Source: Synoicihabitans lomoniglobus (GTDB lineage Bacteria > Verrucomicrobiota > Verrucomicrobiia > Opitutales > Opitutaceae). From it: a stretch of 64,000 bases of DNA. Numbering within the stretch: position 1 is the first letter of the stretch; each line of letters starts with the position of its first letter. Below, one piece after another: positions 27,418-44,624 of this stretch. The translations under genes were made by a program, and so were the position numbers. The notes under the pieces are model-generated. The model was not told the origin of the DNA and made no database searches. It saw only the letters and a list, made by a program, of their open reading frames with translations. The stretch is taken from positions 3,281,501-3,345,500 of the forward strand of contig NZ_CP119075.1 in the NCBI RefSeq assembly GCF_029023725.1, given 5' to 3'.

Positions 27418-28584
27418 TCAACCCCGCTTCACATTCTGTTGATGTCGACGGCGATATTCCCCGGGAGTGATCCGGGACAACCGCTTGAACACCACACTCA
27501 TGTATTCGGTGTGCTCAAAGCCGGCAAACTCGGCGATACGCTTCAGGGGATAATCGGTGTCCACCAGCAGTTGTTTGATCCGATCCACCTGCACGCGACG
27601 AATCTCGGCCTGCGGAGATCGACCAAAAAACTTGCGGAATTTCTTTTCCAACTGACTGCGCGACGCCGACGCGTGCTTGAGCACCTCATCCACCGTCAGC
27701 CCGGAACACGCATGCTCGCGGATGTAGCTCAGCGCCGCCGCCACATTGCGATCGTCCACCGCCAACACGTCGCTCGACTGCCGCGAAACCACGCCCCGCG
27801 GATCGATGCGCACATAACTGCTCTCCAGTGGCTCCCCCGTCATCAGCTTGTGCAACGTTTCCGCGGCGCGATATCCCGATTGAAACGGATCAGTCGCCAC
27901 GCTCGACAGGGGCGGAAACGATAATTCGCAGCGAATCGCATCGTCGTTCGCCCCCAACACCGCCACTTCCTCGGGGACCAATATCCCGGCTTCCTGACAG
28001 GCCGCCATGATTTGAAAGGCACGCATGTCGTTACAGGCCTGCACGCCGATCGGCTTCGGCAAACCGCTGATCCATTTTGCCAGAATCGCGGTTTGTTCCT
28101 GATCCCAGGCCGGACTCAAGTCTCCCGGGTAATCGACCTCAAATACCTCGCATCCCACCCCTCCCAGCTTGGTGGCTTCGAGGAAGCCGTCCCTTCGCTC
28201 GTGCGCCCACGCACAATTGGAAAACCCCGCAAACCCCACCTTCCGGAAGCCGCGCTCCATGAAATGCTCAGCACCCAGATGTCCCAGCGCATGATTGTCG
28301 GGACGAATCTTCGGCACACCTTCGTAGGGCTCGGTATCACTCAAATCGACCAACGGAATGCCCAACAACTTGCACTCTTTCACCATGGCGGGCGTGGTGT
28401 GCCGACTGATCACCCCCGACCACGGCTTGCTGCGTATCCACCCGGGATCGGTCTCCGCCTTGGCCTCGTCGTCAATATAGGCCTGCCAGGGTCGATGCGA
28501 CCGTTCGAAGTGAGCGATGCCCCGCAACATCGCGTTACACTCCTCATAAAACATCATGAATACCAACAGCACTTGGGGACGCAT
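27418..28584 (-). CDS. XylR-type transcriptional regulator (sugar-binding domain plus AraC HTH)
   Basis: 388 residues starting MRPQVLLVFMMFYEECNAML. The N-terminal two-thirds is a LacI/periplasmic-binding-like fold (GVISRHT, IRPDNHALGHLGAEHFMERG, VLGANDDAIRCELSFPPLSS). The C-terminal 100 residues form an AraC double helix-turn-helix (VDEVLKHASASRSQLEKKFR, IKQLLVDTDYPLKRIAEFAG). This is the XylR layout and length, known for xylose control in E. coli. The sugar sensed here cannot be inferred, as no catabolic operon is adjacent. I chose the ATG at 28584; a 12-residue upstream extension is possible. Confidence 0.85.
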   Translation of the reverse strand: MRPQVLLVFMMFYEECNAMLRGIAHFERSHRPWQAYIDDEAKAETDPGWIRSKPWSGVISRHTTPAMVKECKLLGIPLVDLSDTEPYEGVPKIRPDNHALGHLGAEHFMERGFRKVGFAGFSNCAWAHERRDGFLEATKLGGVGCEVFEVDYPGDLSPAWDQEQTAILAKWISGLPKPIGVQACNDMRAFQIMAACQEAGILVPEEVAVLGANDDAIRCELSFPPLSSVATDPFQSGYRAAETLHKLMTGEPLESSYVRIDPRGVVSRQSSDVLAVDDRNVAAALSYIREHACSGLTVDEVLKHASASRSQLEKKFRKFFGRSPQAEIRRVQVDRIKQLLVDTDYPLKRIAEFAGFEHTEYMSVVFKRLSRITPGEYRRRHQQNVKRG

Positions 28585-28775
28585 TCCCTTCACTAGGAAC
28601 AATGCCCCCCCAGGACGCAATAATCCTTAATGCTATCGCAACCCTACGACGCGGTCATCGCGCCTCGCCATCCCAGAACCAGCGTGATCATCGGGACAGC
28701 GACACACCGCCCCATCCGCACAATCACACGCGTCGGCGGCCCGTCCGCCCCCCGCTCCGTTCGTCCCTCTCCCCG

Positions 28776-30227
28776 CTACAAAGACGGTTCGCGACCAAAC
28801 TTTGACCGATAGGTCTGGCGCAGACGCTCCCGCATCTCCGCCGGGGTTTTGATCTGGTCGACCACCCGTTTCCACCACTGATCCGCTTCGACCACATCCC
28901 CGGTGGAAATGGCAAAATAACACAACGTCGCCTGGGCCATCGGGTGCCCGGGCTCCTTCAACAACGCTTCATGCAGCGCTTGCAAGGCTTCGTCATTGCG
29001 ACCGAGCGTGAACCACACGCCCGCGATCTCGATCAACGGATCCGGCTCGCTGGGTTTGAGGCGGTAAGCTTCTTGAAAATGCGCCAACGCCCGCCGTTTC
29101 TGGTTGGATTCGTTCAGTCGACGCCCCTCCGCCAAGTGCAGTCCCCGCGACTCCGGACACCGCGCCAATCCTTTGGTAATCGCCTGATTCGCGGCCACCG
29201 TGTCGCCCATCGTCTTGTAAGCTTCGATCAACTGCAGCCACGATTCCGAATCCTCCGAATCCACCTCCACCGCCTTTTCGAGCGAAAAGCGCGCGCCGGA
29301 AAAATCGCGCTGACTCAATTCCAGTCTACCCAGCTGCCGCAGGTAGGCACTTGAGACCGGATCGAGTAAAATCGCTCGCTGCAAATACGCTTTGGCCTGC
29401 GACGGCTTGCCCGCCGCTCGGGCGACGGCGGCAGCGACGCTCAACCGATACGCGTCCACGCATTCGTTCATGGTCTCATCGAGCCACGGGTCGCTGAAAT
29501 CGACAAACTCCCGACCATCCATACGCAGTTGCACCGCGTCGGCCGCGCGCTCGTGACCCAGTTTGCGCTCCACGCTGACCAGCAGCGACAACGCGCCAAT
29601 GAAGTTCGGATCCTCGGCGGTGGCTTGTTGCAAACGCTGTCGCGCCTGCGTCCAGTTTTCCTCGCGCATCGCCAATCGCGCCAGACCAAGCAGAGCGTAA
29701 ACGTTGCCCGGTTCGAGGGTCAGCACCGCTTCGTAGACGGCGCCCGCTTCGTCGTCGCGGTTGAGCTTGGTCAAGATATCACCCCGGCGCAATCGGGCCG
29801 GCAGGTAATCCGGCGCCAACTCGATCGCCGCCGTCGCCATGATGGCCGCGTCATCGAGCCGACCGAACCCGGCCAGAATACTGACCGGCAGGTGATACCA
29901 CCGCGCCACCCCCGGTTGCAGTTCCTGCAACGCGCCGTAGCACGCCATTGCCTCGGGATAAAATCCGTTGGCATGGTAGATCCGACTCAAACGGACCAAT
30001 CCCTCCGGGGCGCCAAACAGTTCCTTGGTGGCACCTTCCGCCGTCGTTAGATTCCCCGCCAAAAGCGACGTCCACCCCGTCAGATCCGGACGCACCGGCA
30101 CACTCGCCTGCACAAAGTCGCGAGCCCGCGAAGCCTGCAACAATCGCCAGCCGCCCGCCACCGTCGCCACGATGATGACCGCGAGGGACGCTCGACCAAA
30201 CCAACGTGTGTTTCGGGAGGCACTCAT
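28776..30227 (-). CDS. Membrane-anchored TPR protein
   Basis: 483 residues. An N-terminal helix (ASLAVIIVATVAGGWRLLQA) anchors it, with the rest outside the cytoplasm. Repeated TPR-like helix pairs follow, for example YHANGFYPEAMACYGALQEL, NRDDEAGAVYEAVLTLEPGN, YALLGLARLAMREENWTQA, RDFSGARFSLEKAVEVD, and GRNDEALQALHEALLKEPGH. It probably scaffolds a protein complex. Its start overlaps the stop of the VCBS lipoprotein gene by four bases (ATGA at 30224-30227), so the two are co-translated. The cluster also contains two STT3-like proteins. Confidence 0.8.
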   Translation of the reverse strand: MSASRNTRWFGRASLAVIIVATVAGGWRLLQASRARDFVQASVPVRPDLTGWTSLLAGNLTTAEGATKELFGAPEGLVRLSRIYHANGFYPEAMACYGALQELQPGVARWYHLPVSILAGFGRLDDAAIMATAAIELAPDYLPARLRRGDILTKLNRDDEAGAVYEAVLTLEPGNVYALLGLARLAMREENWTQARQRLQQATAEDPNFIGALSLLVSVERKLGHERAADAVQLRMDGREFVDFSDPWLDETMNECVDAYRLSVAAAVARAAGKPSQAKAYLQRAILLDPVSSAYLRQLGRLELSQRDFSGARFSLEKAVEVDSEDSESWLQLIEAYKTMGDTVAANQAITKGLARCPESRGLHLAEGRRLNESNQKRRALAHFQEAYRLKPSEPDPLIEIAGVWFTLGRNDEALQALHEALLKEPGHPMAQATLCYFAISTGDVVEADQWWKRVVDQIKTPAEMRERLRQTYRSKFGREPSL

Positions 30228-31543
30228 GGTGATTTCCGTGCCGTCCACAGCGTGAGGCGGCCCATCTTTTCGTAGGGCGGATAAGAATGAAACGCCCCGG
30301 CCACGATGTCGGGGATGCCGTCACCGGTCAGGTCGCCCACGTCACACGAGATGAGTTGCACCGGCTGCTTCGCCAGCACCTGCATGGTGAAGTTGTTCGT
30401 GCCGTCGTTGCGGAAAACCACCAACGAAATCGCGTCGGGATTCTGCCAGTCGTTGAAGCCACTGACACTCACAATGTCCATCACGCCACGACCTTCCAGA
30501 TCCGCGCCGACTGGACTGTAAGCCCCCGGCATGTCGCCGACGCGATGAAACTTAAACGCGCCCTGGCCGAGGTTTTCGAGCCATTGCAGTCCGTGCCAGG
30601 GACGCTTGCCCGGGTCGGCGTAGGCAAACCCGTCGCCGTTGGTGTAAAGCACGTCCATGCGCCCGTCGCGGTTGATGTCGCTCAGACTGATGCCACTGCT
30701 GCCGTAGTCTTCGTTGGTCGAACCGAACAGAATGCGATCGGTGAAATAACCGCTGCCGCTGTTTTCAAAGTAGTGCACTTCCTCCCACTGCTGCGAAACC
30801 ACCGCGACGATATCCAACGCCCGATCGCCGTTCATGTCGGCCACGCATACATTGATCGCCCCTGAGAGACTGAGCAGAACTTTGCTTTCAAACGTGCCGT
30901 CACCCCGGTTTCGCATCCAGCGGATCTCGCCTTGATCGTAGCCAAACTGCGCCACCGCGAGATCGAGGAGTCCATCGCCATCGAAATCCGCCGCCCGGGC
31001 ATCCGTGACTCGCATCACGTTCTCAGCCACGACGCGCGGGGTGAAATTTTGCGCCCCATCGTTTTCCAATATAAGCAGCGAGCCAATGTGGTCGTTGTTG
31101 GGGAACACCTGCCCCATGCACGACACCAACAGGTCGAGGTCGCCGTCGGCATCCATGTCGACCGCTTCGACATGCACCGGCGCGGGCAGTTGCTCGGCCA
31201 ACACCGTCTCTTCAAATTGCCCCGGGGCCACTTGCCGCAGCCACAGCACGGTCAGCGCCTTGTCGTCGCAGGCCAGCACGTCGTTGCGACCATCCTGGTC
31301 AAGATCGGCGATTCGCACGTGCGAAATCCACGGCGGACCTTCCCCGGCTTTCCCGATGGGAGTCGCGACATAACGATCAGTCGCCCACTCCACCGTGGTT
31401 TTCTCCAACGTAGGCCGAGGCACGGTGACGGACGGTTTTTTGCCACAGCCACTCAGGAGCAATCCCAACGCCCCGATGCCGAGCGCGGCAGCCAGATAAC
31501 AATGACGAGATGTATTCAAATTTCCGATTCCTTCGTAGTTCAC
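30224..31543 (-). CDS. VCBS/FG-GAP repeat lipoprotein
   Basis: 439 residues with a lipoprotein signal (LGIGALGLLLSGCGKK, lipobox LSGC). The mature part is a beta-propeller of FG-GAP/VCBS repeats with calcium-loop motifs such as DLDQDGRNDVL, DMDADGDLDLLV, DFDGDGLLDLAV, DMNGDRALDIV, DINRDGRMDVLY and DLTGDGIPDIV. Such proteins usually act at the cell surface in adhesion or as complex partners. It is co-translated with the TPR protein downstream and follows the STT3-like gene at 31553-34000 by only nine bases, so the four minus-strand genes may form one operon. Confidence 0.85.
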   Translation of the reverse strand: MNYEGIGNLNTSRHCYLAAALGIGALGLLLSGCGKKPSVTVPRPTLEKTTVEWATDRYVATPIGKAGEGPPWISHVRIADLDQDGRNDVLACDDKALTVLWLRQVAPGQFEETVLAEQLPAPVHVEAVDMDADGDLDLLVSCMGQVFPNNDHIGSLLILENDGAQNFTPRVVAENVMRVTDARAADFDGDGLLDLAVAQFGYDQGEIRWMRNRGDGTFESKVLLSLSGAINVCVADMNGDRALDIVAVVSQQWEEVHYFENSGSGYFTDRILFGSTNEDYGSSGISLSDINRDGRMDVLYTNGDGFAYADPGKRPWHGLQWLENLGQGAFKFHRVGDMPGAYSPVGADLEGRGVMDIVSVSGFNDWQNPDAISLVVFRNDGTNNFTMQVLAKQPVQLISCDVGDLTGDGIPDIVAGAFHSYPPYEKMGRLTLWTARKSP

Positions 31544-31552
31544 TTGATCCGG

Positions 31553-34000
31553 TCACACGCGACTGCGCCACTCCGGCGGCAGTAGCTCGCGGGCCAGCGC
31601 CGCCAACCGGGCATCGGTTATGGTTAAATTATGGATACGACCCAGCGCGAGCAACCGATACAGGGCGCGGGTCGACATGCTGCGCAGTCGCGTTTCGTTG
31701 ATCTGGGCAAAACACCGCTCGGCCTGAATCCGCGCTTCCGCCGCTTTGGCCTGCGTCAACACCAGTGCGAGGCTGAGCCGGCGATCCCACGGCAAGCCAC
31801 GGTCGCCCCCGGCGGCGAGTCGCGACTGCAACGTGCCCAGACACGTTCCAAATTCATTTTGGTTGCCCGTCGAGGCCGCCACTTCCGCCCGGGTTACCCA
31901 GGCTCCCAAATCGAACGTGGATTGCGTGAGGGTCTGCGCGATCGCAGCCGCGTAGTTCACCCGGTCCATTTCGATGAAATAACTCGCCATGCGGCTCAAC
32001 GCCAAGATGTCAGTCTGTTCGTCGACCACTTCAAAGAGCACGATCGACTGCCCTTCAAATCCGGCCACGGTCGGCATCTCATAAGCGACGGGCCGGAGCC
32101 ACGTGGGTTGGGACCAATTGCGCATGGCCCCGTAAAACGATCCCTCCAGTTGCGGCGTCCCCAGCAGCGTGTAGTGCTCCATGGATTGGTCCCACGAGGG
32201 CAGCGCAATGCGCGTGATGCGGCGGTTCTCCATCAGTAACCTTGCCTCCTGCGGACTCGACGCACTGAGGATGCGGACCATCGCCTCCGAACCGGCTTCG
32301 TTGTCGCGGGACAGTGTCGCGACCCCGCGTAAACTCCCATAGTAATGGAAGGGAATCGTCTCACTGGTGGGTGCCAGCATGACCGCATCCTCGACGCCCG
32401 CGCGCTTGGCGAGCCAGTGACTAAAATCACGCTGAATCAGCCCCGCCAGCTCGGGCGTCTCCAGCACAAACTTTCCCCGTTTCGGCAGGCCCGCCAGTAA
32501 CCCCGGCAACAGCACCATCACCAGCGCCGCGCCTGCCCCCCATTGCACGCCCCGGCTCAGCCGCACGGCGGAAAGCCCGGCCGCCCCGGCAACAACGAGC
32601 ACCAACAGAACCACATCAAAGTAGCTCCACCAACTCAGTTGCCCGCAGCCAAAACCGAGCGCCACCAACACCGGTCCCAGCGCCACCGTCAGGCCGAGAC
32701 GCTGCTCTCGTCGGCCGATGCGACGCGCCAACATCCACCCCACCGGCCCAATCAAAACCACCGGCAACAGCGTGGCCCAAGCGAGTGCACCGGCCGTCCC
32801 GCTTCCGAGCCATGCAAACAAACTGACCGCTTCCGGAGCTTCGGCTATTTTGCCCAACCGGGAGGACGCAAAATCCGTGGTTAAAAATCCTGCGTTACCC
32901 GTGACTTTCATTCCCAGCGGCAAGGCAAACCCGGCCACGCCCCCGACCGCCGCGAGCGCAACGGTGCGGCGATCCCATTTCACCGCCATGTTTTCCAACC
33001 GCGGCAGTAGCACCGCCAAAACCAACCCCATTCCCAACCAACTCACCGCGTAAAGCGGATGCATCCGCCGCAATTCCCATTCACCGAAATGCGCCGGAAA
33101 ACTCTCCGCCGCAAAACCCAACATCGCCGTAGCCGTTCCCACCATCGCCCACCACATCCAGGGTGCCGACGACAACGTCGCGCTTCCCCGACTTCCCGGC
33201 TCCACCGGGGTTTCGCGTCGCATCAGGTAGGTGCCCGCGACAGCGCCGAGCCCGATCCCCACCAACAGCGGCCATTGCTTCGTCACATCGAGCCAAAGCC
33301 CCGCGCCCCCGCAGATTCCGCTCACGCCGAACCACCTCCGAAGCTTCGAATTAGGCCTATTCGTCCGCGACGCGTCGGCCAAACCCGCCACGATTGCCAG
33401 CACACTTCCCAACGCACAGCCCAACCCCAACGTGGCATCATCCGGCAGGCCGGCCGCGAAGCGGGTCGACAACGGAAACAGCGCCGCGAGGCCCCACGCC
33501 GCGATCACCGCGGGCATCGGTCCAAAAACCCGCCTGACCAGCGCGGCCACCACCAGCAAAAGCAAAACCTGCAGCAAGGGATCCGCATACAGAGCGGCGT
33601 GTTCCACCGCGACGCCCACGGGTTGGCCCGTCACCCCATGGTCCACCATGGCCACCGTGCCCAGCCACCAGCGATAAGGTGACGCGGCAATGATCTCATG
33701 TCCCTGCGGCGCATTCGCGTAATCGATGCGCCGCATCTGTATCTGACCATCATGCAACATTTTCTGTGTTTGCATGATCCACTCCGCCGATCCGTAGAAC
33801 GGTGCCGGGATCACCAGACGGCGCATTTCCTGCGCATAACCCGTGGCTGACTCCGTCGAAGTTTTAAGTTCCACCGGCACCGCATCCGCGACCATCTGGG
33901 CTCGTTTGACGCGCGCCGTCTGTGTCCAAACGACGAATACCACCGCGCCCAAAACGGCCACGATCCACAACAAACCGGCGAACGAACGGGGGCGACTCAT
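31553..34000 (-). CDS. STT3-like (GT-C) polytopic membrane protein, copy 1
   Basis: 815 residues. A first TM helix, then a large extracytoplasmic loop with RRIDYANAPQGHE and SPYRWWLGTVA. About ten further helices follow and then a soluble C-terminal domain of roughly 300 residues. The layout (first loop with an acidic residue, 'NAPxG', later GLPDDATLG) resembles oligosaccharyltransferase STT3/PglB proteins. The DHH-like motif is degenerate, and I cannot show a WWDYG-type acceptor motif, so activity is uncertain. Its neighbour at 34088 is a clear paralogue. Start chosen at the ATG at 34000 (MSRPRSFAGLLW). Confidence 0.6.
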   Translation of the reverse strand: MSRPRSFAGLLWIVAVLGAVVFVVWTQTARVKRAQMVADAVPVELKTSTESATGYAQEMRRLVIPAPFYGSAEWIMQTQKMLHDGQIQMRRIDYANAPQGHEIIAASPYRWWLGTVAMVDHGVTGQPVGVAVEHAALYADPLLQVLLLLVVAALVRRVFGPMPAVIAAWGLAALFPLSTRFAAGLPDDATLGLGCALGSVLAIVAGLADASRTNRPNSKLRRWFGVSGICGGAGLWLDVTKQWPLLVGIGLGAVAGTYLMRRETPVEPGSRGSATLSSAPWMWWAMVGTATAMLGFAAESFPAHFGEWELRRMHPLYAVSWLGMGLVLAVLLPRLENMAVKWDRRTVALAAVGGVAGFALPLGMKVTGNAGFLTTDFASSRLGKIAEAPEAVSLFAWLGSGTAGALAWATLLPVVLIGPVGWMLARRIGRREQRLGLTVALGPVLVALGFGCGQLSWWSYFDVVLLVLVVAGAAGLSAVRLSRGVQWGAGAALVMVLLPGLLAGLPKRGKFVLETPELAGLIQRDFSHWLAKRAGVEDAVMLAPTSETIPFHYYGSLRGVATLSRDNEAGSEAMVRILSASSPQEARLLMENRRITRIALPSWDQSMEHYTLLGTPQLEGSFYGAMRNWSQPTWLRPVAYEMPTVAGFEGQSIVLFEVVDEQTDILALSRMASYFIEMDRVNYAAAIAQTLTQSTFDLGAWVTRAEVAASTGNQNEFGTCLGTLQSRLAAGGDRGLPWDRRLSLALVLTQAKAAEARIQAERCFAQINETRLRSMSTRALYRLLALGRIHNLTITDARLAALARELLPPEWRSRV

Positions 34001-34087
34001 GAGGGGTTCAACAGCGGACAAAACAGGTGGGCGCGACTGCTCGACGAACTAAGCAATTCGCGTTTAAAGAGACCACGGGAAAAGTGC

Positions 34088-36514
34088 TCATTCGGCATCA
34101 CGCAAAGCCACCGGTAGCAGTTCAACCGCCAAGCCTCGCAAGGCGTCGTCTTCCATGGTCAACCCCAGCGCGTCGTTGAGGGCCAGATAGTAAAAAAGTC
34201 CATGGTTCGATAGCGCGCGCAGCCGCTTCTCATTCACCCGATCCAAGCACCAACGCGCTTGTTTCTCGGCCAGATCCATCCGGTTTCCCCGCGCGAGCAA
34301 TACCGCCAGGCTCACGCGCCGATCCCACGACAGACTGCGATCCGCCCCGCCTTGCAAACGGTCCACCACGCGCTGAAAAATCTCCGCAAACGCCTCCGCT
34401 TTACCGAGCGCCGCCTCCAGCTCAGCCAACGCCACCAAGGCACTGAAATCCGCCGGATACTTCAGGAGCAACTGGCGCGAAAGGTCAGCGTTCTCCAACT
34501 GTCCCATCTCGATAAAATATGCAGTCAAGCGACTGGCTGCCGCCGGTTCCGTCTGCTCATCGACCAGTTCCAACACCCGCACGTGATAACCCTCCAATCC
34601 CGGGATTTTGGGTGCAACATAAGCCACCGGCTTCAGCCAGGTGGGCAGGATCCATCGATCCAACGTGGGATAAAACATGTCTCCCACCTGCACCGACGCG
34701 TCGGCCAAATATTGGCTGAAAAACGGATCCCACGATGGCAACACCAAGTGAGTCACGCCGCGACTTTCCAACAAGGCCAAACTCTCGTGACGGGAAGTCG
34801 AGATCACGATTCGGATCGCCGCGAGCAAGCCTTCCGTATTCTCCCATGAATTCGAAGCCACGCCCTGCAATCCGCCATAGTAGGAGAGCGCTGTCGTGAG
34901 CACCGGTGGAGCCAGCACGATCGCTTTGCCATCCGTTTGGGTGGCCATCCAGTGCGCGAGATCTCGCTCCAACACGCTCTCCGCTTCGGTCAAATTGAGC
35001 GTCACTTCGTCCGCCGCCGGGACCGTCGTTGCCGTCTGCACCGCGCCAACCAACAACACAATGCCTCCGGCCGTCGCCGCGATTCCCCGCCGGGCCCGCG
35101 GTAGTCGCTTTTCACTCACCATGGCCCAGAGCACAGCCATGCCGAACAACGAAACTCCATCGACCAACATCCACCACCGCAGCTGCGGCCACGCCAAGCC
35201 GACCAACGGCACCAGCACCCCCGCGAGCAACGCCAGCTGCGAAACGTGTTCGATCGAGCCCCGCCGTCGCCCCACGATCCAGCCGACCGGAATCCACACC
35301 ACCAGCGGCACCAGGGTCGCCATGGTCGCGAACGTCATTCCCTCGGCCTGTAACCACGCGCCCAAACTCGGGGCAAACACCCCCGTGGGCTCTTTGGTCA
35401 GCCGAAAGGCCAGTGACTCGGTCGCCAAAAATCCGGGATTTTCCGCCAGCCACATGGTCACCGGAACCGCCAAACTGGCACTCAGTCCCAACGCACTCAG
35501 TCCGACGCCGCCAAACCCCTGCGGTCGTTCACCGCGCTGAATCCACCTCGTCAATCGTGCCAGCACTTCGCCGGCCCCGATCCAGCTCAAGCCATAGAGC
35601 GGATGCACCGCGCGCAGCTCCCACGTGTCGAGCTGATCCGGGAAATACTCCACCATACTCCCGAGCAAAACCATCGCCCCCCCACCCAGCGCCCACCCGC
35701 GCCACGGCAGCAGAACCGGTCGCGCCGCGTATGCTCCACGCCGACTCCATGCCACCAGTAACGCTCCCAGCCCGATACCAAGACACACCGGCACTTGGTC
35801 CGCCGGCCGTATCCACAGCGCGATCCCTCCCCCTACTCCCGCCACCGCGAACCAGCGCATCGCCGCTGTCGGGCTTCGCGAATCCGCCCGCGCCACCCCG
35901 GCCCCGAGAGCGCAGACACTCAGCAGCGCAAAAATGGCAAACAACCCATGATCGTCCGGCACGCCGGGAGGATACGCCGCCGCCAGCGGAAACATCGTCG
36001 CTCCGCCCAGCGCCATCCATACCGCCGCACCCCCGCCCCATACCCGCGCCACCAACCCCACCGCCATCACCAGAAAAATGCCCCCCAACCAGGGATCGGC
36101 GATCAACGCCGCCCGCTCCACCGCCAGACCCTCCGGCATTCCCGAGAGGCTGTGCTCACCGTGAGCCACGATTTCCAACCACCATCGATACGGGGCGGCG
36201 ACATGCGTCTCCCGACCAAACGGGGCATTCTCATCGGGCACGGCGCGCAGCCGCCAGCGTCCGTCGGCCATCGCTCGCTGCGTTTGCGCGATCCACTCGA
36301 AACTTCGGCCCGAAACATCCGACACCACCCGGTCCCGCACCGCCCCCCGATAACCGGTCGGCGAAGTGCCATCAATCACCGCTTCACCTCGCGTCTGCGC
36401 CGCCACCGCATCGAGCCGGTCCACCCGTCGATCGGCGGCCCAGAACCCAAAAATCAACGCTGCGACCAAGGCAGGAATCCAGACAAAATCAGATGGGGAA
36501 CGCGGGGTAATCAT
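34088..36514 (-). CDS. STT3-like (GT-C) polytopic membrane protein, copy 2
   Basis: 808 residues, paralogous to the protein at 31553 over its whole length. It has an N-terminal helix, the loop with RAVPDENAPFGRETHVAAPYRWWLEIV, then GVPDDHGLFAIFALL (closer to the STT3 DHH motif than copy 1), many helices, and a C-terminal soluble part (PSWDPFFSQYL, LVDEQTEPAAASRLTAYFIE). A glycosyltransferase of the lipid-linked-sugar-dependent GT-C type is the best guess; the acceptor could be the surface proteins encoded next to it. It is divergent from the VCBS/ASPIC gene at 36653 across about 140 bases. Confidence 0.6.
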   Translation of the reverse strand: MITPRSPSDFVWIPALVAALIFGFWAADRRVDRLDAVAAQTRGEAVIDGTSPTGYRGAVRDRVVSDVSGRSFEWIAQTQRAMADGRWRLRAVPDENAPFGRETHVAAPYRWWLEIVAHGEHSLSGMPEGLAVERAALIADPWLGGIFLVMAVGLVARVWGGGAAVWMALGGATMFPLAAAYPPGVPDDHGLFAIFALLSVCALGAGVARADSRSPTAAMRWFAVAGVGGGIALWIRPADQVPVCLGIGLGALLVAWSRRGAYAARPVLLPWRGWALGGGAMVLLGSMVEYFPDQLDTWELRAVHPLYGLSWIGAGEVLARLTRWIQRGERPQGFGGVGLSALGLSASLAVPVTMWLAENPGFLATESLAFRLTKEPTGVFAPSLGAWLQAEGMTFATMATLVPLVVWIPVGWIVGRRRGSIEHVSQLALLAGVLVPLVGLAWPQLRWWMLVDGVSLFGMAVLWAMVSEKRLPRARRGIAATAGGIVLLVGAVQTATTVPAADEVTLNLTEAESVLERDLAHWMATQTDGKAIVLAPPVLTTALSYYGGLQGVASNSWENTEGLLAAIRIVISTSRHESLALLESRGVTHLVLPSWDPFFSQYLADASVQVGDMFYPTLDRWILPTWLKPVAYVAPKIPGLEGYHVRVLELVDEQTEPAAASRLTAYFIEMGQLENADLSRQLLLKYPADFSALVALAELEAALGKAEAFAEIFQRVVDRLQGGADRSLSWDRRVSLAVLLARGNRMDLAEKQARWCLDRVNEKRLRALSNHGLFYYLALNDALGLTMEDDALRGLAVELLPVALRDAE

Positions 36515-36652
36515 GCGGGGCCGGAGTGGCTGTCGTCAGACGCCAACACCGCTGAAATCACACCCGCAAAATGCCTCCATGCAAAGCCTCGAAATCACGA
36601 ACATCGGGTTCCCTTGACTCAGCCCGAATCGACCTTCGACTGAAGCGCATCC

Positions 36653-39600
36653 ATGCTGGTGCCCGCCCGTTCCCCCAACCTCGTCCACACCGTGCCCCCC
36701 ACCCCGCGTTTCCCTGCTTTTGTGCGGCTGATCTGGCTCTCAATTGCCGTGGCCAATCTCGCCGTGCACGCGGCGGATAACGTGACGTATCACCCTCTGT
36801 CACCACGTTCTCAACCGGGGGGCGAAACGTTGTTCACGACGTTGTCGCCCGACGCCACCGGCGTTCACACGACCAACGACTACACCGACCCGCGCATGTG
36901 GGGCGATCGCTACCACGAATTCGAAATTGGAGCCATTGGCACGGGGGTGACCATTGGCGACTACGATGGCGATGGTCGGCCCGATATTTTTGTCGTAAGT
37001 AAAACCGAAAGCAGTCGCCTGTTTCGCAATTTGGGTAACTTCAAATTTGAGGATGTAACCAATGCCGCGGGCGTGGCCGGCACCGGCGCCGACGCGATCG
37101 TCTGGAAGCAGGGTGCCAGCTTCGCCGACATCAACAACGACGGCTGGCTCGACTTGTATGTCTGCCGGTTGGGCGCGCCCAATCTTCTCTACGTCAACCA
37201 AGGCAACGGCACCTTTCGCGAGGCCGCCGCCGCCCACGGTTTGGCCATCGTCGACGGCTCCTCCATGGCGGCGTTTGCCGACTACGATCGCGACGGCTGG
37301 TTGGACCTGTATCTGCATACCAATCTGCTCGACAATCAGACGCATCCCGCCGGTCAACCCGACTACCTGCTGCATAACAACGGCGACGGGTCCTTCACGG
37401 ATGTATCCGTCGCCGCCGGTATCAGCCGAGCCGATACTCAAGCCAACTCCGCCACGTGGTGGGATTTCGACGAGGACGGCTGGCCCGACCTCTACGTCGC
37501 CAACGACTTTGCGGTGCCCGATTTCTTCTATCGCAACAACGGCGACGGCACCTTCACCAACATCATCGATACCGCCGTGCCGCACCTGCCCTACTCTTCC
37601 ATGGGCGGTGACATCGGCGACATCGACGGCGACGGTCGGCTCGATTTCATCGTCGCCGACATGGCCGCGTCGACCCACTCCAAGGATCAACGCACCATGG
37701 CGGAGACCCGCAGCCGCACCGATGATCCTCCCGCCGGTGATCGCGCGCCGCCCAACTACCTGCACAATGCCGTCTACCTCAACACCGGCACGCCTCGCTT
37801 TTTCGAAGCTGCCTTTCTCACCGGCCTCGCCGCAACGGACTGGACGTGGGCCGTGCGTTTCGAGGACTTGGACAACGACGGCCGCGTCGACGTGTTCGTC
37901 ACCAACGGCATGCACCGCGAGATTCACAACACGGATCTGCTCCAGCGCATGATGACTTCCGAACGCGCCAACGAACGTGTGCGCATCGCCAAGTCCAGCC
38001 CCGTGCTCGAAGAGGCCAACCTTGCCTATCGCAATCGCGGTGACCTGCGATTTGAGCGGACCGAACAACCCTGGGGTCTCGATCAGCGGGGCGTGAGTTT
38101 CGGCGCCGCCTTCGGTGATCTCGACGGCGATGGCGATCTGGATCTGGTTTACACCAATTACCTCGCCGGCGCTTCCGTGCTGCGCAACGACAGCACGACC
38201 GGGCATCGCTTGCTGCTCAATCTGCGCGGACGGGACTCCAACCATTTCGGCGTCGGGGCGCGCGTGCGACTCACGACGGCTTCCGGCGTGCAGGTGCGTG
38301 AACTCGTGCTGGCCCGCGGCTCGATGTCCGCCAGCGAACCGGTCGTGCACTTCGGCCTCGGGACCGATGAACGCATCGAGAAACTGGAAGTGTTCTGGCC
38401 CAGCGGACGCCACCAGATTTTGCACGATGTCGCCGTGGACCAACGCCTCACCATTACCGAGCCCACCGGCTCCGCCACCGTCGATCCCACCGCTCCGCCC
38501 TCACCGCAATTCGTCGAAGTCGGCGCCGCGCATAATCTGCGGTGGACCGCGCGCGAACCCATCGTCGACGAGATTGCCCAACAACGTTTGTTGCCCACGC
38601 GGTTCAATCGACTCGGTCCCGGTCTCGCCGTGGCCGACCTCACCGGCGACGGGCGCGACGACGTTTTCATCGGCGGCACCTCGCTCGATCCCGCACGCAT
38701 TTTGATCGGCGCGGCCGACCAGCCTTTCATCGCCTTGGAGGGACTCGATACCGGCAAGGGCTTCGGTGTGAACGACGGTCCACTGCTCGTCTTCGATGCC
38801 AACGGCGACGGGCGCAACGATTTGCTCGTCACCAAAGGTGGCAGCAGCCAGCCCGCCGGCGCGCCGGAGTATCAGCCCGTGTTGTTGCACAACGTGGGTA
38901 GTGGCTTGAAACCGGCTCCGGCGGATACGTTGCCAAGTCTGCCCATCAGTGTGGGCGCCGTGGCGGCGGCCGACTTCGATCGCAATGGCCTGCTCGATCT
39001 CTTCGTCGGCGCCCGAGTGCTGCCCGGTTACTATCCGGCCACGCCGCGGAGTGCGTTACTGCAAAATCACCACGGTCGATTCATTGATGTGACCGATCAA
39101 GTTGCGCCGGCGCTGCGCGAAGTGGGACTCGTCACGTCTGCCTTGTGGAGCGACGTCGACGCCGACGGCTGGAGCGACTTGCTCGTCACCGTGGAATGGG
39201 GGCACGTGAAGTATTTCCACAACGATGCCGGGCAAGGCTTCACCGACCGGACTGCTCCATCCGGTTTCGCGGCGGCCGGCACGGGCTGGTGGAATTCCAT
39301 CTCCACCGCCGACTTCAATGGCGACGGCCGCCTCGACTATCTGGTGGGTAATGCCGGACTGAATACGCGCTACCACGCCAGTCCCGACGAGCCGGCCGTG
39401 CTCTATTTCGGCGCGTTCGGCGGCGACGGCCCGGAGCTGGTGATCGAGGGTTACTACGAGAACGGAAAGCTATACCCCCGCCGGAGTCGGCGGGAACTCG
39501 GTGCCGCCATCCCGGAGATACGCCGCAAGTATCGCCGCAATGACTACTACGCCAACGCGACGCTCGATGTCATTGTGGGGGCCGAGGCGTTGCAGGACGC

Positions 39601-40282
39601 CGAAAAATTCGTCGCCACCGAGCTCCGCAGCGGCGTGTTGCTCAGCAATGCGGCGGGCACCTACACCTTTCACCCGTTGCCACGATTGGCCCAGATCGCC
39701 CCGGTGTTTGGTCAGGCCGTGGCGGACTTTAACGGCGACGGCCACACCGATGTTGCGGTCGTCACCAACAGCTTTGCGCCCGACCCGATCATGAGTCGCT
39801 TTGACGGCGGACTCGGCTGGATTTTGTCCGGCGATGGTGCGGGTAATTTCAGTCCGGCCGATCCGGCGACGAGCGGGTTCGTGGTGCCGCGCGACGCCAA
39901 GGCCCTGGCCCCGATCGATTTTAACGCCGACGGTTGGCCCGACCTGATTGCCACGCGCAACAACGATGCCTCGCTGGCATTCCGGAATCAGGGCGTGGAA
40001 GGTGGGAATGTCTTGCGCGTTCGGCTCGCCGGGGGTCCGGGCAATCCCGATGGCGTCGGGGCGGTGATACAACTCACTCTCGCCGACGGTTCGATTCAAA
40101 TGGCGGAGGTTTCCGCCGGGTCGGGCTACCGCAGTCAATCGACCGGCGGCGTTTACTTTGGGTATCCGTCCGACAATCCTGCGCGATCAATCGAGGTGCG
40201 CTGGCCGGACGGAACATCGAGCACGCATCAACCCACCGCAGGGCAAGCGAGCATGACTCTGCCGTTTCCGAGTCGGCCGTGA
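36653..40282 (+). CDS. VCBS repeat protein with two ASPIC/UnbV domains (CRTAC1-like)
   Basis: 1209 residues with a signal peptide (FVRLIWLSIAVANLAVHA). Calcium-loop VCBS repeats occur throughout: DYDGDGRPDIFVV, DINNDGWLDLY, DYDRDGWLDLYLH, DFDEDGWPDLYV, DIDGDGRLDFI, DLDGDGDLDLVY, DVDADGWSDLLV, DFNGDGHTDVAVV. A first ASPIC/UnbV domain lies at about residues 522-602 (HFGVGARVRLTTASGVQVRE) and a second at about 1121-1205 (GVGAVIQLTLADGSIQMAEV). So it looks like two propeller-plus-ASPIC units joined in one chain. It is exported, and a surface or extracellular role is likely. It is divergent from the STT3-like operon. Confidence 0.88.
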   Translation: MLVPARSPNLVHTVPPTPRFPAFVRLIWLSIAVANLAVHAADNVTYHPLSPRSQPGGETLFTTLSPDATGVHTTNDYTDPRMWGDRYHEFEIGAIGTGVTIGDYDGDGRPDIFVVSKTESSRLFRNLGNFKFEDVTNAAGVAGTGADAIVWKQGASFADINNDGWLDLYVCRLGAPNLLYVNQGNGTFREAAAAHGLAIVDGSSMAAFADYDRDGWLDLYLHTNLLDNQTHPAGQPDYLLHNNGDGSFTDVSVAAGISRADTQANSATWWDFDEDGWPDLYVANDFAVPDFFYRNNGDGTFTNIIDTAVPHLPYSSMGGDIGDIDGDGRLDFIVADMAASTHSKDQRTMAETRSRTDDPPAGDRAPPNYLHNAVYLNTGTPRFFEAAFLTGLAATDWTWAVRFEDLDNDGRVDVFVTNGMHREIHNTDLLQRMMTSERANERVRIAKSSPVLEEANLAYRNRGDLRFERTEQPWGLDQRGVSFGAAFGDLDGDGDLDLVYTNYLAGASVLRNDSTTGHRLLLNLRGRDSNHFGVGARVRLTTASGVQVRELVLARGSMSASEPVVHFGLGTDERIEKLEVFWPSGRHQILHDVAVDQRLTITEPTGSATVDPTAPPSPQFVEVGAAHNLRWTAREPIVDEIAQQRLLPTRFNRLGPGLAVADLTGDGRDDVFIGGTSLDPARILIGAADQPFIALEGLDTGKGFGVNDGPLLVFDANGDGRNDLLVTKGGSSQPAGAPEYQPVLLHNVGSGLKPAPADTLPSLPISVGAVAAADFDRNGLLDLFVGARVLPGYYPATPRSALLQNHHGRFIDVTDQVAPALREVGLVTSALWSDVDADGWSDLLVTVEWGHVKYFHNDAGQGFTDRTAPSGFAAAGTGWWNSISTADFNGDGRLDYLVGNAGLNTRYHASPDEPAVLYFGAFGGDGPELVIEGYYENGKLYPRRSRRELGAAIPEIRRKYRRNDYYANATLDVIVGAEALQDAEKFVATELRSGVLLSNAAGTYTFHPLPRLAQIAPVFGQAVADFNGDGHTDVAVVTNSFAPDPIMSRFDGGLGWILSGDGAGNFSPADPATSGFVVPRDAKALAPIDFNADGWPDLIATRNNDASLAFRNQGVEGGNVLRVRLAGGPGNPDGVGAVIQLTLADGSIQMAEVSAGSGYRSQSTGGVYFGYPSDNPARSIEVRWPDGTSSTHQPTAGQASMTLPFPSRP

Positions 40283-40486: not shown

Positions 40487-43400
40487 TTAGAACTCAAACG
40501 TGTTGCTGAGATTCCAACTCATGCCCTCCGTTATTCGAGAGAAGCCCGTCGTGCCGTCGGGGTTTATGCTGACCGGCTCCAGTCCCTTACTTTCACCGAC
40601 GTTGCGCATGTTGAGTTGAATGCGCCAATCGACCTTCTCGGACAGCGGTCTCGAGTAGCCGACCCAAACATCCAAGTGACCGGTGGATCCCCCTTTGAAA
40701 GGGGCATCGATGTTCAGCGTGCCGGAAGCGGCGTCGTATTGGTAACCCAGGATACGACCTTGCTCCCAACGGTAGCTGCCCCCGATCCAGGCTCCCTTCA
40801 AAAAGCCCTCATCGAATTTGTAATTCGTGACGGTGTTGAAGCGCCAAGGGGCGATTTCCGGCGAGTTCTGCCCTTCCTGCGACTTGAAGGTCGAGTAAGG
40901 ATTCAGGATGTTGTTCTGCCATTGCACACGGAATGCGTTGGCTTCACCACCACCCCAGAGGCGGATGTCACCGGCCGGGCCGGCGAGGAACTGGGTGAAG
41001 TCGTCGATGAATCCGGCAATGGTCGGCGACAACGTGTTGATCGTCGCGAACGTCTTGGACGCATTGACCGCGACATTCCAGTTGCGCGTGGGTTGAGCAA
41101 GGAGCTCGAACTCATAGCCCTTGGAGAGGGTGTCGACCGAGAACACCGGAGCGGTGCCGAAGGTGGCGAGCACGCCGCCGGAGACGGGTTGGTTGTCGAA
41201 CTTCTGGTCCCAGATGGGATCGGCCACGCCCCAGTTTCCGGATTGGATACCGGCGACATTGATCAGCGCGACTTCGTTGCCGTAGGCGTTGAAGAAGTTC
41301 TGATCGAGGGGAATGCCGCGCCAGGCTTCAATGCCGTTGATGAGCAATTGCGCGCTGGGGTGCTGCGACCACGCGGGATTGATGTCTCCGTTGGGCAGAC
41401 GGAATTCCGGTCCGTCAGCATCATCCGCCGCGACGTAGTCCCACGCCCAGGCGTTGTTGTCGTTCTGACCAGCCACGCCGAAGGCGGCGTTGGCGGTGAA
41501 CGCGGTGCCCCAGGCCGGCACGGCCCAGAGGAAGTAGGAGTTTTGGCCGAGCGGGTTGCTGCCCGACAGCGTGGCGTTGGCCACTTCGGTCTCATACTTG
41601 GTCACCTTCAGCGAGAGCTTGTCGTTGGCGCTCGACACCGAGAATCCGTATTCCTTGGTCTTGCCCAGGGGGTTCGGGATCGCGTTGCCGAAGATGTCAC
41701 CGCGAGGAGCACCGGCCCGGAAGTTCTCCCCCTTGAAGTAGTGGAACGCGAACTTCGCGCCGATGCCTTCGGTCCACTTGGCCGGAACTTTGAGCACGGC
41801 ACCGTAGCTGCTGGTCTCACCGTCCGTGTGGAGGGTCTCCGGATTGAGATCGAAGTCGGTGTTCACGATGCCGAGGGCATCGGGGACCGCCGCACCCGCC
41901 GTGTTGGCGATGCGATCCTTGCGCCAGCCAAAGGTCGGCACGAGGATGTCGTCGAACATGTGACCCTGCCAGGTGAAGGCCTGGGAGTGCAGGATGTATT
42001 CGGCGCGCTGAGCATTGTAAGTCAGCGCGTCCTTGTCGCCGCGATCGGCGCTGAGGAACGGCACGTTCATGGTCGTCCAACCACCGTAGTTGGCGGGGTT
42101 TTCGGACTGCGTGGATTCAACCAGCGTATTGTCGCCACCGATGAGATTGCGATTTTGCTGCTGGTAGAAGTAAGGCGCGGCCGGGTCGACGTAGTTCGGA
42201 TCGCCGGGGGTCGTGGAACGCGCCCAGTTGTTGTCAAACACGGTCACCAAACCGCTGGTGGGAGCCTTCACCTCGTAGTTGACGGGGGAAAGGTTCGCGC
42301 CCGAAGCGGAGGAGCGGCCCTGGAGGCTCGGTCCCAGATAGGCTATGTAGTTGTAGGAACGGAAGTGCGACGTGAGGCTGTTGTTCTCACCCGTGAACTG
42401 TGTGTAGGACGGATCGGCGGCGGACGTCGCCCAATCGGTGCGGCGGGTCGTTTGCTGGTCGCGACCGGCCAGACCGGTGATGGTGTGGTTACCCAGGATC
42501 TTCGCGAGACGGGACTCGTCGTCGAAGAAGTCCGACGCGCGCAACTCGCCGTAAGCCGTGAGGCGGCTGGAGTCGCGATTGCTCTCGAAGTAGTGGTTGG
42601 CCTGTTCGTCGGAGTTGGCGACGTAGGGGCGGCCCACGTTCGGGTTCTGGGTGCCGTCGTAGAACACCGCGATCATGTCGATCGCGATCTTGTAGGTGTC
42701 GGAGTTGCCGATGAACACGCGCTGCTCATCGGAATAGCGTTGATAGTCCTGCGAATACTCAAAGCCCACGCGATCATTGAAGAAGGTCTGCGAGAACGAG
42801 AAGTTGGCTGCAGTCCAATCGGAGTGCTCATACTTGTTATCGCCGTCGATCAGGTCGTCGTAGAAGTTGAAGATCGTCGGATCGGTGAGCGAACGGTCGG
42901 CGTAGTAGGACCCGCCGGGCATGCCCGAAACGAGCGCGTAGCTGGAGTAGGACGCGATGCCGACGGCACGGGCATTGGGGAGACCGGCAATGCTGCCATC
43001 GATCGCTCCGTCGGTGCCGATACCGTTGCGCACACTGCCACCCGGTTGGCGCAGGGCCGTGGGGCTGGAATCGCCGGTGTTGCCGTAGTAACCGACCACA
43101 TCGAGCCAGAACTGACGACCGATGGCACCGTTGTTGGTCCAAGCCGCCGGGTAGTCACCCTGGGCATCGCTGAAAGGTGCGGCCCCGGGATTCACCTGAC
43201 GTTGATCGTAGATGAACTGGTTCAGTCCCGGGTTTCCATAGGCATCCGTGCCGGTGAGGAACCAAGGTGTGATCGCGTCAACCGGGGGAAGCGTGCGAGG
43301 ACGATTCGCACGAATCCGTCCGGTCTCGTAGTTGGCCCGGATCAGGGTGCGCGCGTCGTCACCGAACAGCTCGGGCTCCCAACGCACGGCCCCGAACAGG

Positions 43401-44152
43401 CGTTCGTCTTTGTTGAACGCTTGTTCCTGCATGTATTTGGTCTCATCGCTGAGCGCGGACACGCGGACGGCCAACTGATCGGGGATCAACACGTAGTTGA
43501 AGTCGCCCGAGAAACGCAGCGATCCGTAGGAATCGATCTCGTTCCCGATGGACGCTTTGTTGATGTAGGTCGCGGTGTTGACCGACGTGTTGATGATACC
43601 GGCGGGGCTGCCGACACCGAAGAGAATCGAATTGGGGCCGCGTTGCATGTCGACGCGGTCGACATTGTAGCTGTCCCACGGAATCTCGGTGAGGAAGTAA
43701 TCACGCGTGTTGTCGGCCGAATCCAAACCACGCACGCGTGTGTTCTGATGCGGACGAAGCAGGTTGCTGTCTTCGTTGTATTGCAGACCGCCGCCCGCAC
43801 CGGAGAAGTTACCACGTAAGCCACCCACTTCCGTGTTGGTGGTGTATTGCAGCAGGGATTGGGTGTCGGTGGCTCCGATATCTTGGAGGAACTCCTTCGT
43901 GATAACCGAGATGGAGGACGCCACGTCCTGCAAATCAGTGCGCACACGCGTCCCGGCCAAGGTGGAGTTCGCGCGGTAGCCATCGGACTCGTTGGCTGAT
44001 TCGATGATGAATGGGGAGAGCACGATCGTCTCCTCATCCAAGTCGGTGGTGGTGGAGTCCTCCACCGACTGAGCACCGGTATACGGTGTGATAGCTAAAC
44101 ATAGGACAGACGCGCCAATCACAGCGCGCCGCCTCACAGTAGGGCTTTTCAT
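40487..44152 (-). CDS. Large TonB-dependent receptor
   Basis: 1221 residues. The signal peptide is RRRAVIGASVLCLAITPYTGAQ. A short acidic linker with a TonB-box-like EETIVLSPFII precedes the plug: SISVITKEFLQDIGATDTQS, TRVRGLDSADNTRDYFL, VDMQRGPNSILFGVGSPAGI. The barrel is very long and ends WNLSNTFEF with the terminal Phe. Length and style match the large receptors that are abundant in Opitutaceae and take up glycans, siderophores or other large solutes; no substrate gene is next to it. The ATG at 44152 (MKSPTVRRRAVIG) is chosen over an in-frame upstream ATG because it starts the signal peptide. A strong terminator follows. Confidence 0.92.
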   Translation of the reverse strand: MKSPTVRRRAVIGASVLCLAITPYTGAQSVEDSTTTDLDEETIVLSPFIIESANESDGYRANSTLAGTRVRTDLQDVASSISVITKEFLQDIGATDTQSLLQYTTNTEVGGLRGNFSGAGGGLQYNEDSNLLRPHQNTRVRGLDSADNTRDYFLTEIPWDSYNVDRVDMQRGPNSILFGVGSPAGIINTSVNTATYINKASIGNEIDSYGSLRFSGDFNYVLIPDQLAVRVSALSDETKYMQEQAFNKDERLFGAVRWEPELFGDDARTLIRANYETGRIRANRPRTLPPVDAITPWFLTGTDAYGNPGLNQFIYDQRQVNPGAAPFSDAQGDYPAAWTNNGAIGRQFWLDVVGYYGNTGDSSPTALRQPGGSVRNGIGTDGAIDGSIAGLPNARAVGIASYSSYALVSGMPGGSYYADRSLTDPTIFNFYDDLIDGDNKYEHSDWTAANFSFSQTFFNDRVGFEYSQDYQRYSDEQRVFIGNSDTYKIAIDMIAVFYDGTQNPNVGRPYVANSDEQANHYFESNRDSSRLTAYGELRASDFFDDESRLAKILGNHTITGLAGRDQQTTRRTDWATSAADPSYTQFTGENNSLTSHFRSYNYIAYLGPSLQGRSSASGANLSPVNYEVKAPTSGLVTVFDNNWARSTTPGDPNYVDPAAPYFYQQQNRNLIGGDNTLVESTQSENPANYGGWTTMNVPFLSADRGDKDALTYNAQRAEYILHSQAFTWQGHMFDDILVPTFGWRKDRIANTAGAAVPDALGIVNTDFDLNPETLHTDGETSSYGAVLKVPAKWTEGIGAKFAFHYFKGENFRAGAPRGDIFGNAIPNPLGKTKEYGFSVSSANDKLSLKVTKYETEVANATLSGSNPLGQNSYFLWAVPAWGTAFTANAAFGVAGQNDNNAWAWDYVAADDADGPEFRLPNGDINPAWSQHPSAQLLINGIEAWRGIPLDQNFFNAYGNEVALINVAGIQSGNWGVADPIWDQKFDNQPVSGGVLATFGTAPVFSVDTLSKGYEFELLAQPTRNWNVAVNASKTFATINTLSPTIAGFIDDFTQFLAGPAGDIRLWGGGEANAFRVQWQNNILNPYSTFKSQEGQNSPEIAPWRFNTVTNYKFDEGFLKGAWIGGSYRWEQGRILGYQYDAASGTLNIDAPFKGGSTGHLDVWVGYSRPLSEKVDWRIQLNMRNVGESKGLEPVSINPDGTTGFSRITEGMSWNLSNTFEF

Positions 44153-44624
44153 TGCTAATTTAGGGGGTGTTAGGGGCAATGGGACCGGTTTGAGAGTCCC
44201 ACAGAGTCGGCTTTTCCAGCGAGGAAACGCCAACGCGCCGCCATATTAGGCTAAATAACCTTAGCTATAAATGAGATCATTTGCTCAGGTTATGCACCTC
44301 TTTCCATGCCTCCGGGTCAACGGTGACCGGCGGTGTTTCGCATGCTCGATGCAGTCTTACTGCATATGGTTTTTCTTAATCTATATCAGTGGCTTACGAT
44401 TTTTATCCCCCAATAAAAGCGACGGTAAACGGTCCTCTATTCCTTCGAATTCCGTCCGTTCACGACGCCAATATTTGGTAAAATGAGGTATTCACCTCCG
44501 CCCAACCATAGAACTGATTGAGAAATAAATACTCTCCACTCTACCACAGCCATCGCCCCACCCCCGCCGTTCGCGGCCTAGGTTGGGAGACCGTCAGTTC
44601 GTCCCCCTGAAATGAGCGACGTGG
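44153..44624. other. AT-richer intergenic region upstream of the large receptor
   Basis: 472 bases with no supported gene; a 71-codon frame at 44271-44486 has no protein-like pattern. Base composition is visibly richer in A/T than the rest of the window (for example 44243-44280 and 44375-44415). It probably holds the promoter and a long leader of the receptor, read on the minus strand, plus the 3' end of the ruvC transcript. I cannot place a -10/-35 pair with confidence. Confidence 0.5.

What the first reader, a model, noticed from the sequence alone, without database searches (positions are those of the whole stretch)
28776..40282. Surface-protein cluster: twin STT3-like proteins, VCBS lipoprotein, TPR protein, divergent ASPIC/UnbV giant
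Four tightly packed minus-strand genes and one divergent gene put two GT-C-like membrane proteins next to exported calcium-loop proteins. A dedicated glycosylation or surface-display system, with the VCBS/ASPIC proteins as substrates, would explain the grouping. The domains are seen; the shared function is inference.
Basis: partly seen in the sequence, partly recalled or inferred. Interest (0 to 1): 0.52.

Follow-up and report, generated by a model that had tools for sequence, protein, structure and literature searches.

The report
Dead glycosylation enzyme paired with giants
A bacterial relative of the enzyme that attaches sugars to proteins appears to have lost its active site and become a fixed genomic partner of very large exported calcium-loop proteins, which suggests a retired enzyme doing a new, non-enzymatic job.

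Summary
The two membrane proteins (808 and 822 aa) belong to a divergent STT3/oligosaccharyltransferase-like family with an added C-terminal TPR domain. The neighbourhood is strongly conserved: 31 of 32 members of their clade lie beside a tandem FG-GAP/ASPIC giant, against 0 of 30 other family members within 3 kb. The dedicated-glycosylation reading is not supported: the residues matching the AglB metal/catalytic ligands (EL1 Asp, Asp and His of DHH, Glu of TIxE) are all kept in 28 of 30 members outside the clade and in 0 of 32 inside it. The clade has support 100 with the motif columns removed. Frames are kept under purifying selection, sequence distances track those of the giants (Mantel r 0.90) better than those of the TonB receptors (0.38), and conservation has shifted to the periplasmic domains. 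Best reading: a pseudo-oligosaccharyltransferase repurposed as membrane-anchored partner (chaperone, export or anchoring factor) of the ASPIC giants in TonB-receptor loci. Catalytic loss is well supported; the chaperone role is inference.

The parts
27418..28620 (-). LacI-type sensor plus AraC-type DNA-binding regulator (400 aa), next to the cluster; likely carbohydrate-responsive
   Evidence: Peripla_BP_3 E 1e-32, HTH_18 E 1e-18; membership of the cluster is inference
28776..30248 (-). TPR protein, 490 aa, hydrophobic N-terminus
   Evidence: TPR_19 E 5e-32; recurs with lipoprotein and STT3-like gene in at least ten loci
30224..31543 (-). FG-GAP/VCBS lipoprotein, 439 aa, lipobox LSGC
   Evidence: FG-GAP_3 E 6e-44; lipobox
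31553..34021 (-). STT3-like twin b, 822 aa: membrane half, OST-type C-terminal globular domain (residues 523-667), TPR domain (670-822)
   Evidence: Pfam STT3 E 0.024; domain alignment to 3vgp Z 11.4; degenerate clade
33791..33793 (-). Gly77 of twin b, column of the EL1 catalytic Asp
   Evidence: alignment column 163
33434..33442 (-). Asp-Asp-Ala (194-196) of twin b in place of Asp-His-His
   Evidence: alignment
34088..36514 (-). STT3-like twin a, 808 aa, 39% identical to twin b
36305..36307 (-). Arg70 of twin a, column of the EL1 catalytic Asp
35948..35956 (-). Asp-Asp-His (187-189) of twin a in place of Asp-His-His: keeps the Asp and His ligands of this motif
35375..35377 (-). Phe380 of twin a, column of the TIxE Glu
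36653..40282 (+). Exported giant, 1,209 aa: two FG-GAP plus ASPIC/UnbV modules in tandem
   Evidence: halves 24% identical, E 5e-18
40487..44233 (-). TonB-dependent receptor, 1,248 aa
   Evidence: Plug domain E 5e-9; a receptor lies within 7 kb of 24 of 32 clade members

Best explanation
The twin membrane proteins are pseudo-oligosaccharyltransferases: STT3/AglB-type proteins that gained a C-terminal TPR domain, lost the metal-binding and catalytic residues, and became genomic partners of exported tandem FG-GAP/ASPIC giants. Shown here: family, motif loss, single clade, one-sided co-occurrence with the giants, purifying selection, tracking of sequence distances. Inferred: the retained OST C-terminal domain plus TPR domain face the periplasm and bind the giant, folding, anchoring or handing it on through the envelope, where it works with the neighbouring TonB receptor, FG-GAP lipoprotein and TPR protein in capturing a (probably glycan) ligand.
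For: Motif counts 0 of 32 against 28 of 30 with all four ligands; other active-site invariants lost while fold residues stay, and no new invariant acid in the membrane half; one clade, SH-aLRT 100, motif columns removed; giant beside 31 of 32 against 0 of 30; among 57 genomes 13 have both, 12 a family member without a giant, and the nine of these 12 whose motifs were read have them intact but for one DHH Asp; dN/dS about 0.25; conservation shifted to the periplasmic domains; Mantel r 0.90 with giants, 0.38 with receptors; OST C-terminal domain Z 11.4 and TPR domain.
Against: No binding, localisation or phenotype data. The membrane half has no reliable model. Residue correspondence to AglB rests on motif identity and order, not on a direct alignment. 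Twin a keeps Asp and His of the DHH motif, and 8 of 32 clade members keep two of four ligands. One clade member (L077) has no giant nearby. Within genome G010 alone twin and giant distances do not correlate (r -0.05, five pairs). Giants exist without the twins, even in the window's genome.
Confidence: 0.55

Rival explanations
1. The twins are still glycosyltransferases, with a changed or metal-free mechanism and another donor, and glycosylate the adjacent giants.
For: STT3-like family and OST-type C-terminal domain; tight linkage to exported proteins; Glu133, Asn96, Arg101 kept in both groups; twin a keeps the DHH Asp and His.
Against: The EL1 Asp and EL5 Glu are nearly always gone and no new invariant acid appears in the membrane half. 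WWDYG is not seen at the equivalent place in either group.
Confidence: 0.18
2. The twins bind a lipid-linked saccharide or polyprenyl phosphate without transferring it (sensor, transporter or lipid-handling role), and the giant is a downstream partner.
For: GT-C folds have a lipid-donor groove (established knowledge); a PAP2-type phosphatase gene lies between the STT3-like gene and a second giant in L062.
Against: The membrane half is the less conserved part in the clade; the PAP2 gene was seen in that one locus only and was not searched for elsewhere.
Confidence: 0.15
3. The twins are decaying genes that merely hitchhike beside the giants.
For: Active-site loss; broken frames in two relatives, G006 and G007.
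Against: Long open frames in all 32 clade rows analysed, dN/dS about 0.25, conserved periplasmic domains, retention in 15 genomes of two families of the order. G006 and G007 are drafts and the giant of G006 is broken as well, so assembly error is likely.
Confidence: 0.05

Closest known systems
Archaeal AglB / bacterial PglB / eukaryotic STT3 oligosaccharyltransferase (Pfam PF02516)
   Same: Multi-pass membrane half plus periplasmic C-terminal globular domain that aligns to AglB-S1/S2 (Z 11.4 and 10.4); relatives outside the clade carry DxD-type EL1, DHH and IxE motifs in the same order
   Different: Catalytic residues lost in the clade; no WWDYG at the equivalent place; extra C-terminal TPR domain; fixed neighbour is an FG-GAP/ASPIC giant
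FG-GAP/ASPIC (CRTAC1-type) proteins
   Same: Giant carries FG-GAP repeats and two UnbV_ASPIC domains
   Different: Two modules in tandem; paired with an STT3-like gene, which most described CRTAC1 proteins are not known to be (recalled)
SusC/SusD-type polysaccharide utilisation loci
   Same: TonB receptor, exported ligand-binding candidates and a LacI/AraC-type regulator together
   Different: No SusD match among the seven proteins scanned; FG-GAP proteins stand where SusD would be
Pseudoenzyme trafficking factors such as iRhoms (recalled, no call)
   Same: A catalytic membrane fold stripped of active residues and kept under selection
   Different: Different fold and organisms; client binding is only inferred here

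Membership tests
STT3/AglB/PglB oligosaccharyltransferase | Sequence match to the STT3 family model | tested here: inconclusive
   Twin b E 0.024, twin a no match; 2 of 30 relatives match at E <= 1, one above the cut-off
STT3/AglB/PglB oligosaccharyltransferase | Periplasmic C-terminal globular domain of OST type | tested here: met
   3vgp Z 11.4 over 129 residues, rmsd 3.0, and 3vu0 Z 10.4; Foldseek prob 0.99-1.00; profile search E 0.06. Model confidence in this stretch is mixed
STT3/AglB/PglB oligosaccharyltransferase | GT-C membrane fold of 13 helices | tested here: inconclusive
   Models of pLDDT 54 and 51; weak Foldseek matches to OST, DPY19 and ArnT at E 0.03-0.08; 8-9 hydrophobic stretches by a crude count
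STT3/AglB/PglB oligosaccharyltransferase | EL1 Asp, EL2 Asp and His/Asp, EL5 Glu (metal and catalytic residues; PMC8342417 passages) | tested here: not met
   All four kept in 0 of 32 clade members against 28 of 30 relatives
STT3/AglB/PglB oligosaccharyltransferase | WWDYG sequon-binding motif | tested here: not met
   Absent at the equivalent place in clade and relatives
STT3/AglB/PglB oligosaccharyltransferase | Transfers a lipid-linked glycan to protein | not testable with these tools
   Needs biochemistry
FG-GAP/ASPIC (CRTAC1-type) protein | FG-GAP repeats followed by an ASPIC/UnbV domain, exported | tested here: met
   N-terminal hydrophobic stretch
SusC/SusD utilisation locus | SusD-like lipoprotein beside the TonB receptor | tested here: not met
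   No SusD family among matches of the seven proteins scanned

The most novel reading that the evidence does not exclude
A pseudo-oligosaccharyltransferase family: the OST fold stripped of catalysis and turned into a dedicated inner-membrane chaperone or export receptor for giant FG-GAP/ASPIC proteins, which in turn act as the ligand-capturing partner of TonB receptors in this branch of Verrucomicrobia.
Probability: 0.35. Interest if true: 0.75.

Novelty: new variant of a known kind. Interest (0 to 1): 0.6.

Why it matters
Oligosaccharyltransferases are textbook enzymes. A clade-wide natural loss of the whole active site with the protein kept under selection would be, as far as the searches made here show, an undescribed pseudoenzyme branch of that fold. 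It would give a functional handle on bacterial ASPIC/UnbV giants, whose role is unknown to me (recalled), and it warns that an STT3-like annotation in such loci does not imply protein glycosylation. It is testable in one cultured strain by deletion and pull-down.

Tried and rejected
Single-sequence PDB search with twin b gave only chance nanobody matches. A profile of the intact relatives also ranked an OST C-terminal domain first (E 0.057), beside a chance match at 0.063, and did not reach a full-length OST, so the motif correspondence rests on motif identity and order, not on a direct alignment to AglB or PglB. A PF02516 search over 145 genomes found mostly short matches to what look like other GT-C-type proteins; none served as an OST reference. 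Plasmids held no relative. The named genome collection gave one locus with a single-sequence query; an alignment would have reached further, and the scan could not be repeated. Two AlphaFold models were poor because only four sequences qualified for that tool; the second model was not searched.

The idea that the TPR proteins are cytochromes, as beside some CRTAC1 genes (recalled), was dropped: no CXXCH in any of the six window proteins checked. Tracking of distances within one genome (G010, five pairs) showed nothing.

Rows left out of the motif table: members without a frame above 600 aa (G006, G007), one truncated row (L061:2-2632), and matches for which no wide flank was fetched or motifs were not read (G018, G030, G033, the second G031, third G035, second G039 and remaining G052 matches; G093, G141, G152, G222, G226, G287, G354). 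Some intact-motif loci lie on short contigs, so absence of a giant there is weaker. The giant search scored at most 12 candidates per genome, so giants are under-counted. Distribution outside the phylum was not tested beyond.

Full report
OBSERVATION. Pfam supports TPR, FG-GAP, and FG-GAP plus ASPIC/UnbV for three of them. The twins barely register: STT3 at E 0.024 for one and nothing for the other. The window lies in a single-contig genome of 5.93 Mb; the one relative found with a name is a Verrucomicrobia MAG.

FAMILY. The genome holds four members of the twins' family and 25 of 57 related genomes, the own one included, hold at least one; a profile of 30 members found matches in 33 of 387 genomes of the phylum. 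One relative passes the Pfam STT3 cut-off. The profile ranks two archaeal OST C-terminal domains first in PDB (E 0.06 and 0.09), and the model of twin b aligns over residues 523-667 to that same domain (3vgp, Z 11.4, rank 1; 3vu0, Z 10.4; Foldseek prob 0.99-1.00). Residues 670-822 align to TPR proteins. The membrane half is not resolved by structure.

NEIGHBOURHOOD. I annotated stretches of up to 20 kb around family members, with the window's own proteins as queries. Of 62 members with a frame above 600 aa, 32 fall in one clade and 30 outside it. In the clade, 29 have a giant of at least 900 aa within 3 kb and two abut a giant cut by a contig end (L051, L084); L077 is the exception. Outside, none has one within 3 kb; L050 has a single-ASPIC protein of another architecture 4 kb away. 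Orientation is opposite in 22 of 29 and the same in 7. A TonB receptor lies within 7 kb of 24 of 32; the window's genome holds 69 Plug matches, a few of them split, about one in 86 kb, so by my estimate this exceeds chance. At least ten loci also carry the FG-GAP lipoprotein and a TPR gene, and the full twin cluster recurs in another genus (L120).

CATALYTIC RESIDUES. Passages of PMC8342417 give the AglB ligands: Asp47 of Gly-Asn-Asp in EL1, Asp161 and His163 of Asp-His-His in EL2, and Glu360 of Thr-Ile-Ala-Glu in EL5; passages of the review PMC7226087 give the PglB counterparts. Family members outside the clade show an EL1 Asp (D-N-D, D-P-D or D-A-D in several), D-H-H, and mostly I-x-E, in the same order. 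Counts: EL1 Asp 30 of 30 outside against 2 of 32 inside; DHH Asp 29 of 30 against 16 of 32; DHH His 29 of 30 against 6 of 32; EL5 Glu 30 of 30 against 4 of 32; all four 28 of 30 against 0 of 32. Other residues invariant outside are lost too, while residues likely to hold the fold (W74, R88, N96, R101, W234, W274, H304) stay, and no new invariant acid appears in the membrane half. The tree built without these columns gives the clade SH-aLRT 100, so the losses may go back to one event and the 32 rows are not independent. WWDYG was not seen at the equivalent place in either group: even the intact relatives are not canonical N-glycosylation enzymes by sequence.

STILL UNDER SELECTION. In the two of seven pairs with the lowest synonymous divergence, dN/dS is about 0.25 and 0.24; the other five are more saturated. 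Compared with the seven long intact relatives, the clade's membrane part is less conserved (mean pairwise identity 0.30 against 0.35) and its TPR part more so (0.39 against 0.31). Distances of the STT3-like proteins track those of the giants (Mantel r 0.90, n 29; 0.81 without the divergent five) better than those of the TonB receptors (0.38, n 22). Two giants are shared by twins, relatedness of loci is not removed, and within genome G010 alone there is no correlation.

ASYMMETRY. In 57 genomes, 13 have a giant and a family member, 4 a giant alone, 12 a family member alone. In the nine of those 12 whose motifs were read, motifs were intact except one missing DHH Asp (L052). Giants occur without the pseudo-OST, even in the window's genome, but the degenerate clade was found almost only with giants.

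MECHANISM. Best supported: a pseudo-oligosaccharyltransferase kept as the membrane partner of the giant, with the OST C-terminal and TPR domains as binding surface. Shown: family, loss, clade, linkage, selection. Inferred: binding, a chaperone or export role, and the link to ligand uptake through the TonB receptor and the LacI/AraC-type regulator. The twins may form two subunits for one giant or may each serve one of its two modules; nothing here separates these.

KNOWN OR NEW. Library searches for ASPIC and UnbV with TonB, CRTAC1 with TonB-dependent, Verrucomicrobia with FG-GAP, TonB and glycosyltransferase, pseudoenzyme with STT3, Opitutus with CRTAC1, ASPIC and UnbV with FG-GAP, inactive GT-C, OST with Verrucomicrobia, and Opitutus with TonB and utilisation loci returned nothing in the listings that describes this. 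I read passages only of PMC8342417, PMC7226087, PMC12758564, PMC10154233 and PMC4973528. The library is open-access only. I file it as a new variant of a known kind: a pseudoenzyme branch of the OST fold.

Noticed in passing
L053:11191-17835 and L085:10772-12787: Long intact relatives sit beside large TPR proteins; two of the three scanned here carry a weak PMT_2-like N-terminus. These could be true glycosylation loci and a useful contrast.
   Followed up: no
L062:11004-12275: A PAP2-type phosphatase gene lies between the STT3-like gene and a second giant, hinting at a polyprenyl-phosphate link.
   Followed up: no
G000:C1:88895-92059 and 4125648-4129355: The window's genome has further ASPIC giants without an STT3-like neighbour; the second has an FG-GAP lipoprotein and a TPR gene nearby (L069).
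   Followed up: partly
L077: The one clade member with lipoprotein and TPR gene but no giant; it keeps an EL1 Asp but not the other ligands.
   Followed up: no
literature, PMC12758564: A CRTAC1-annotated FG-GAP gene is reported between genes for hydrazine-synthase-like subunits in some clades (passage): another unexplained CRTAC1 pairing.
   Followed up: no
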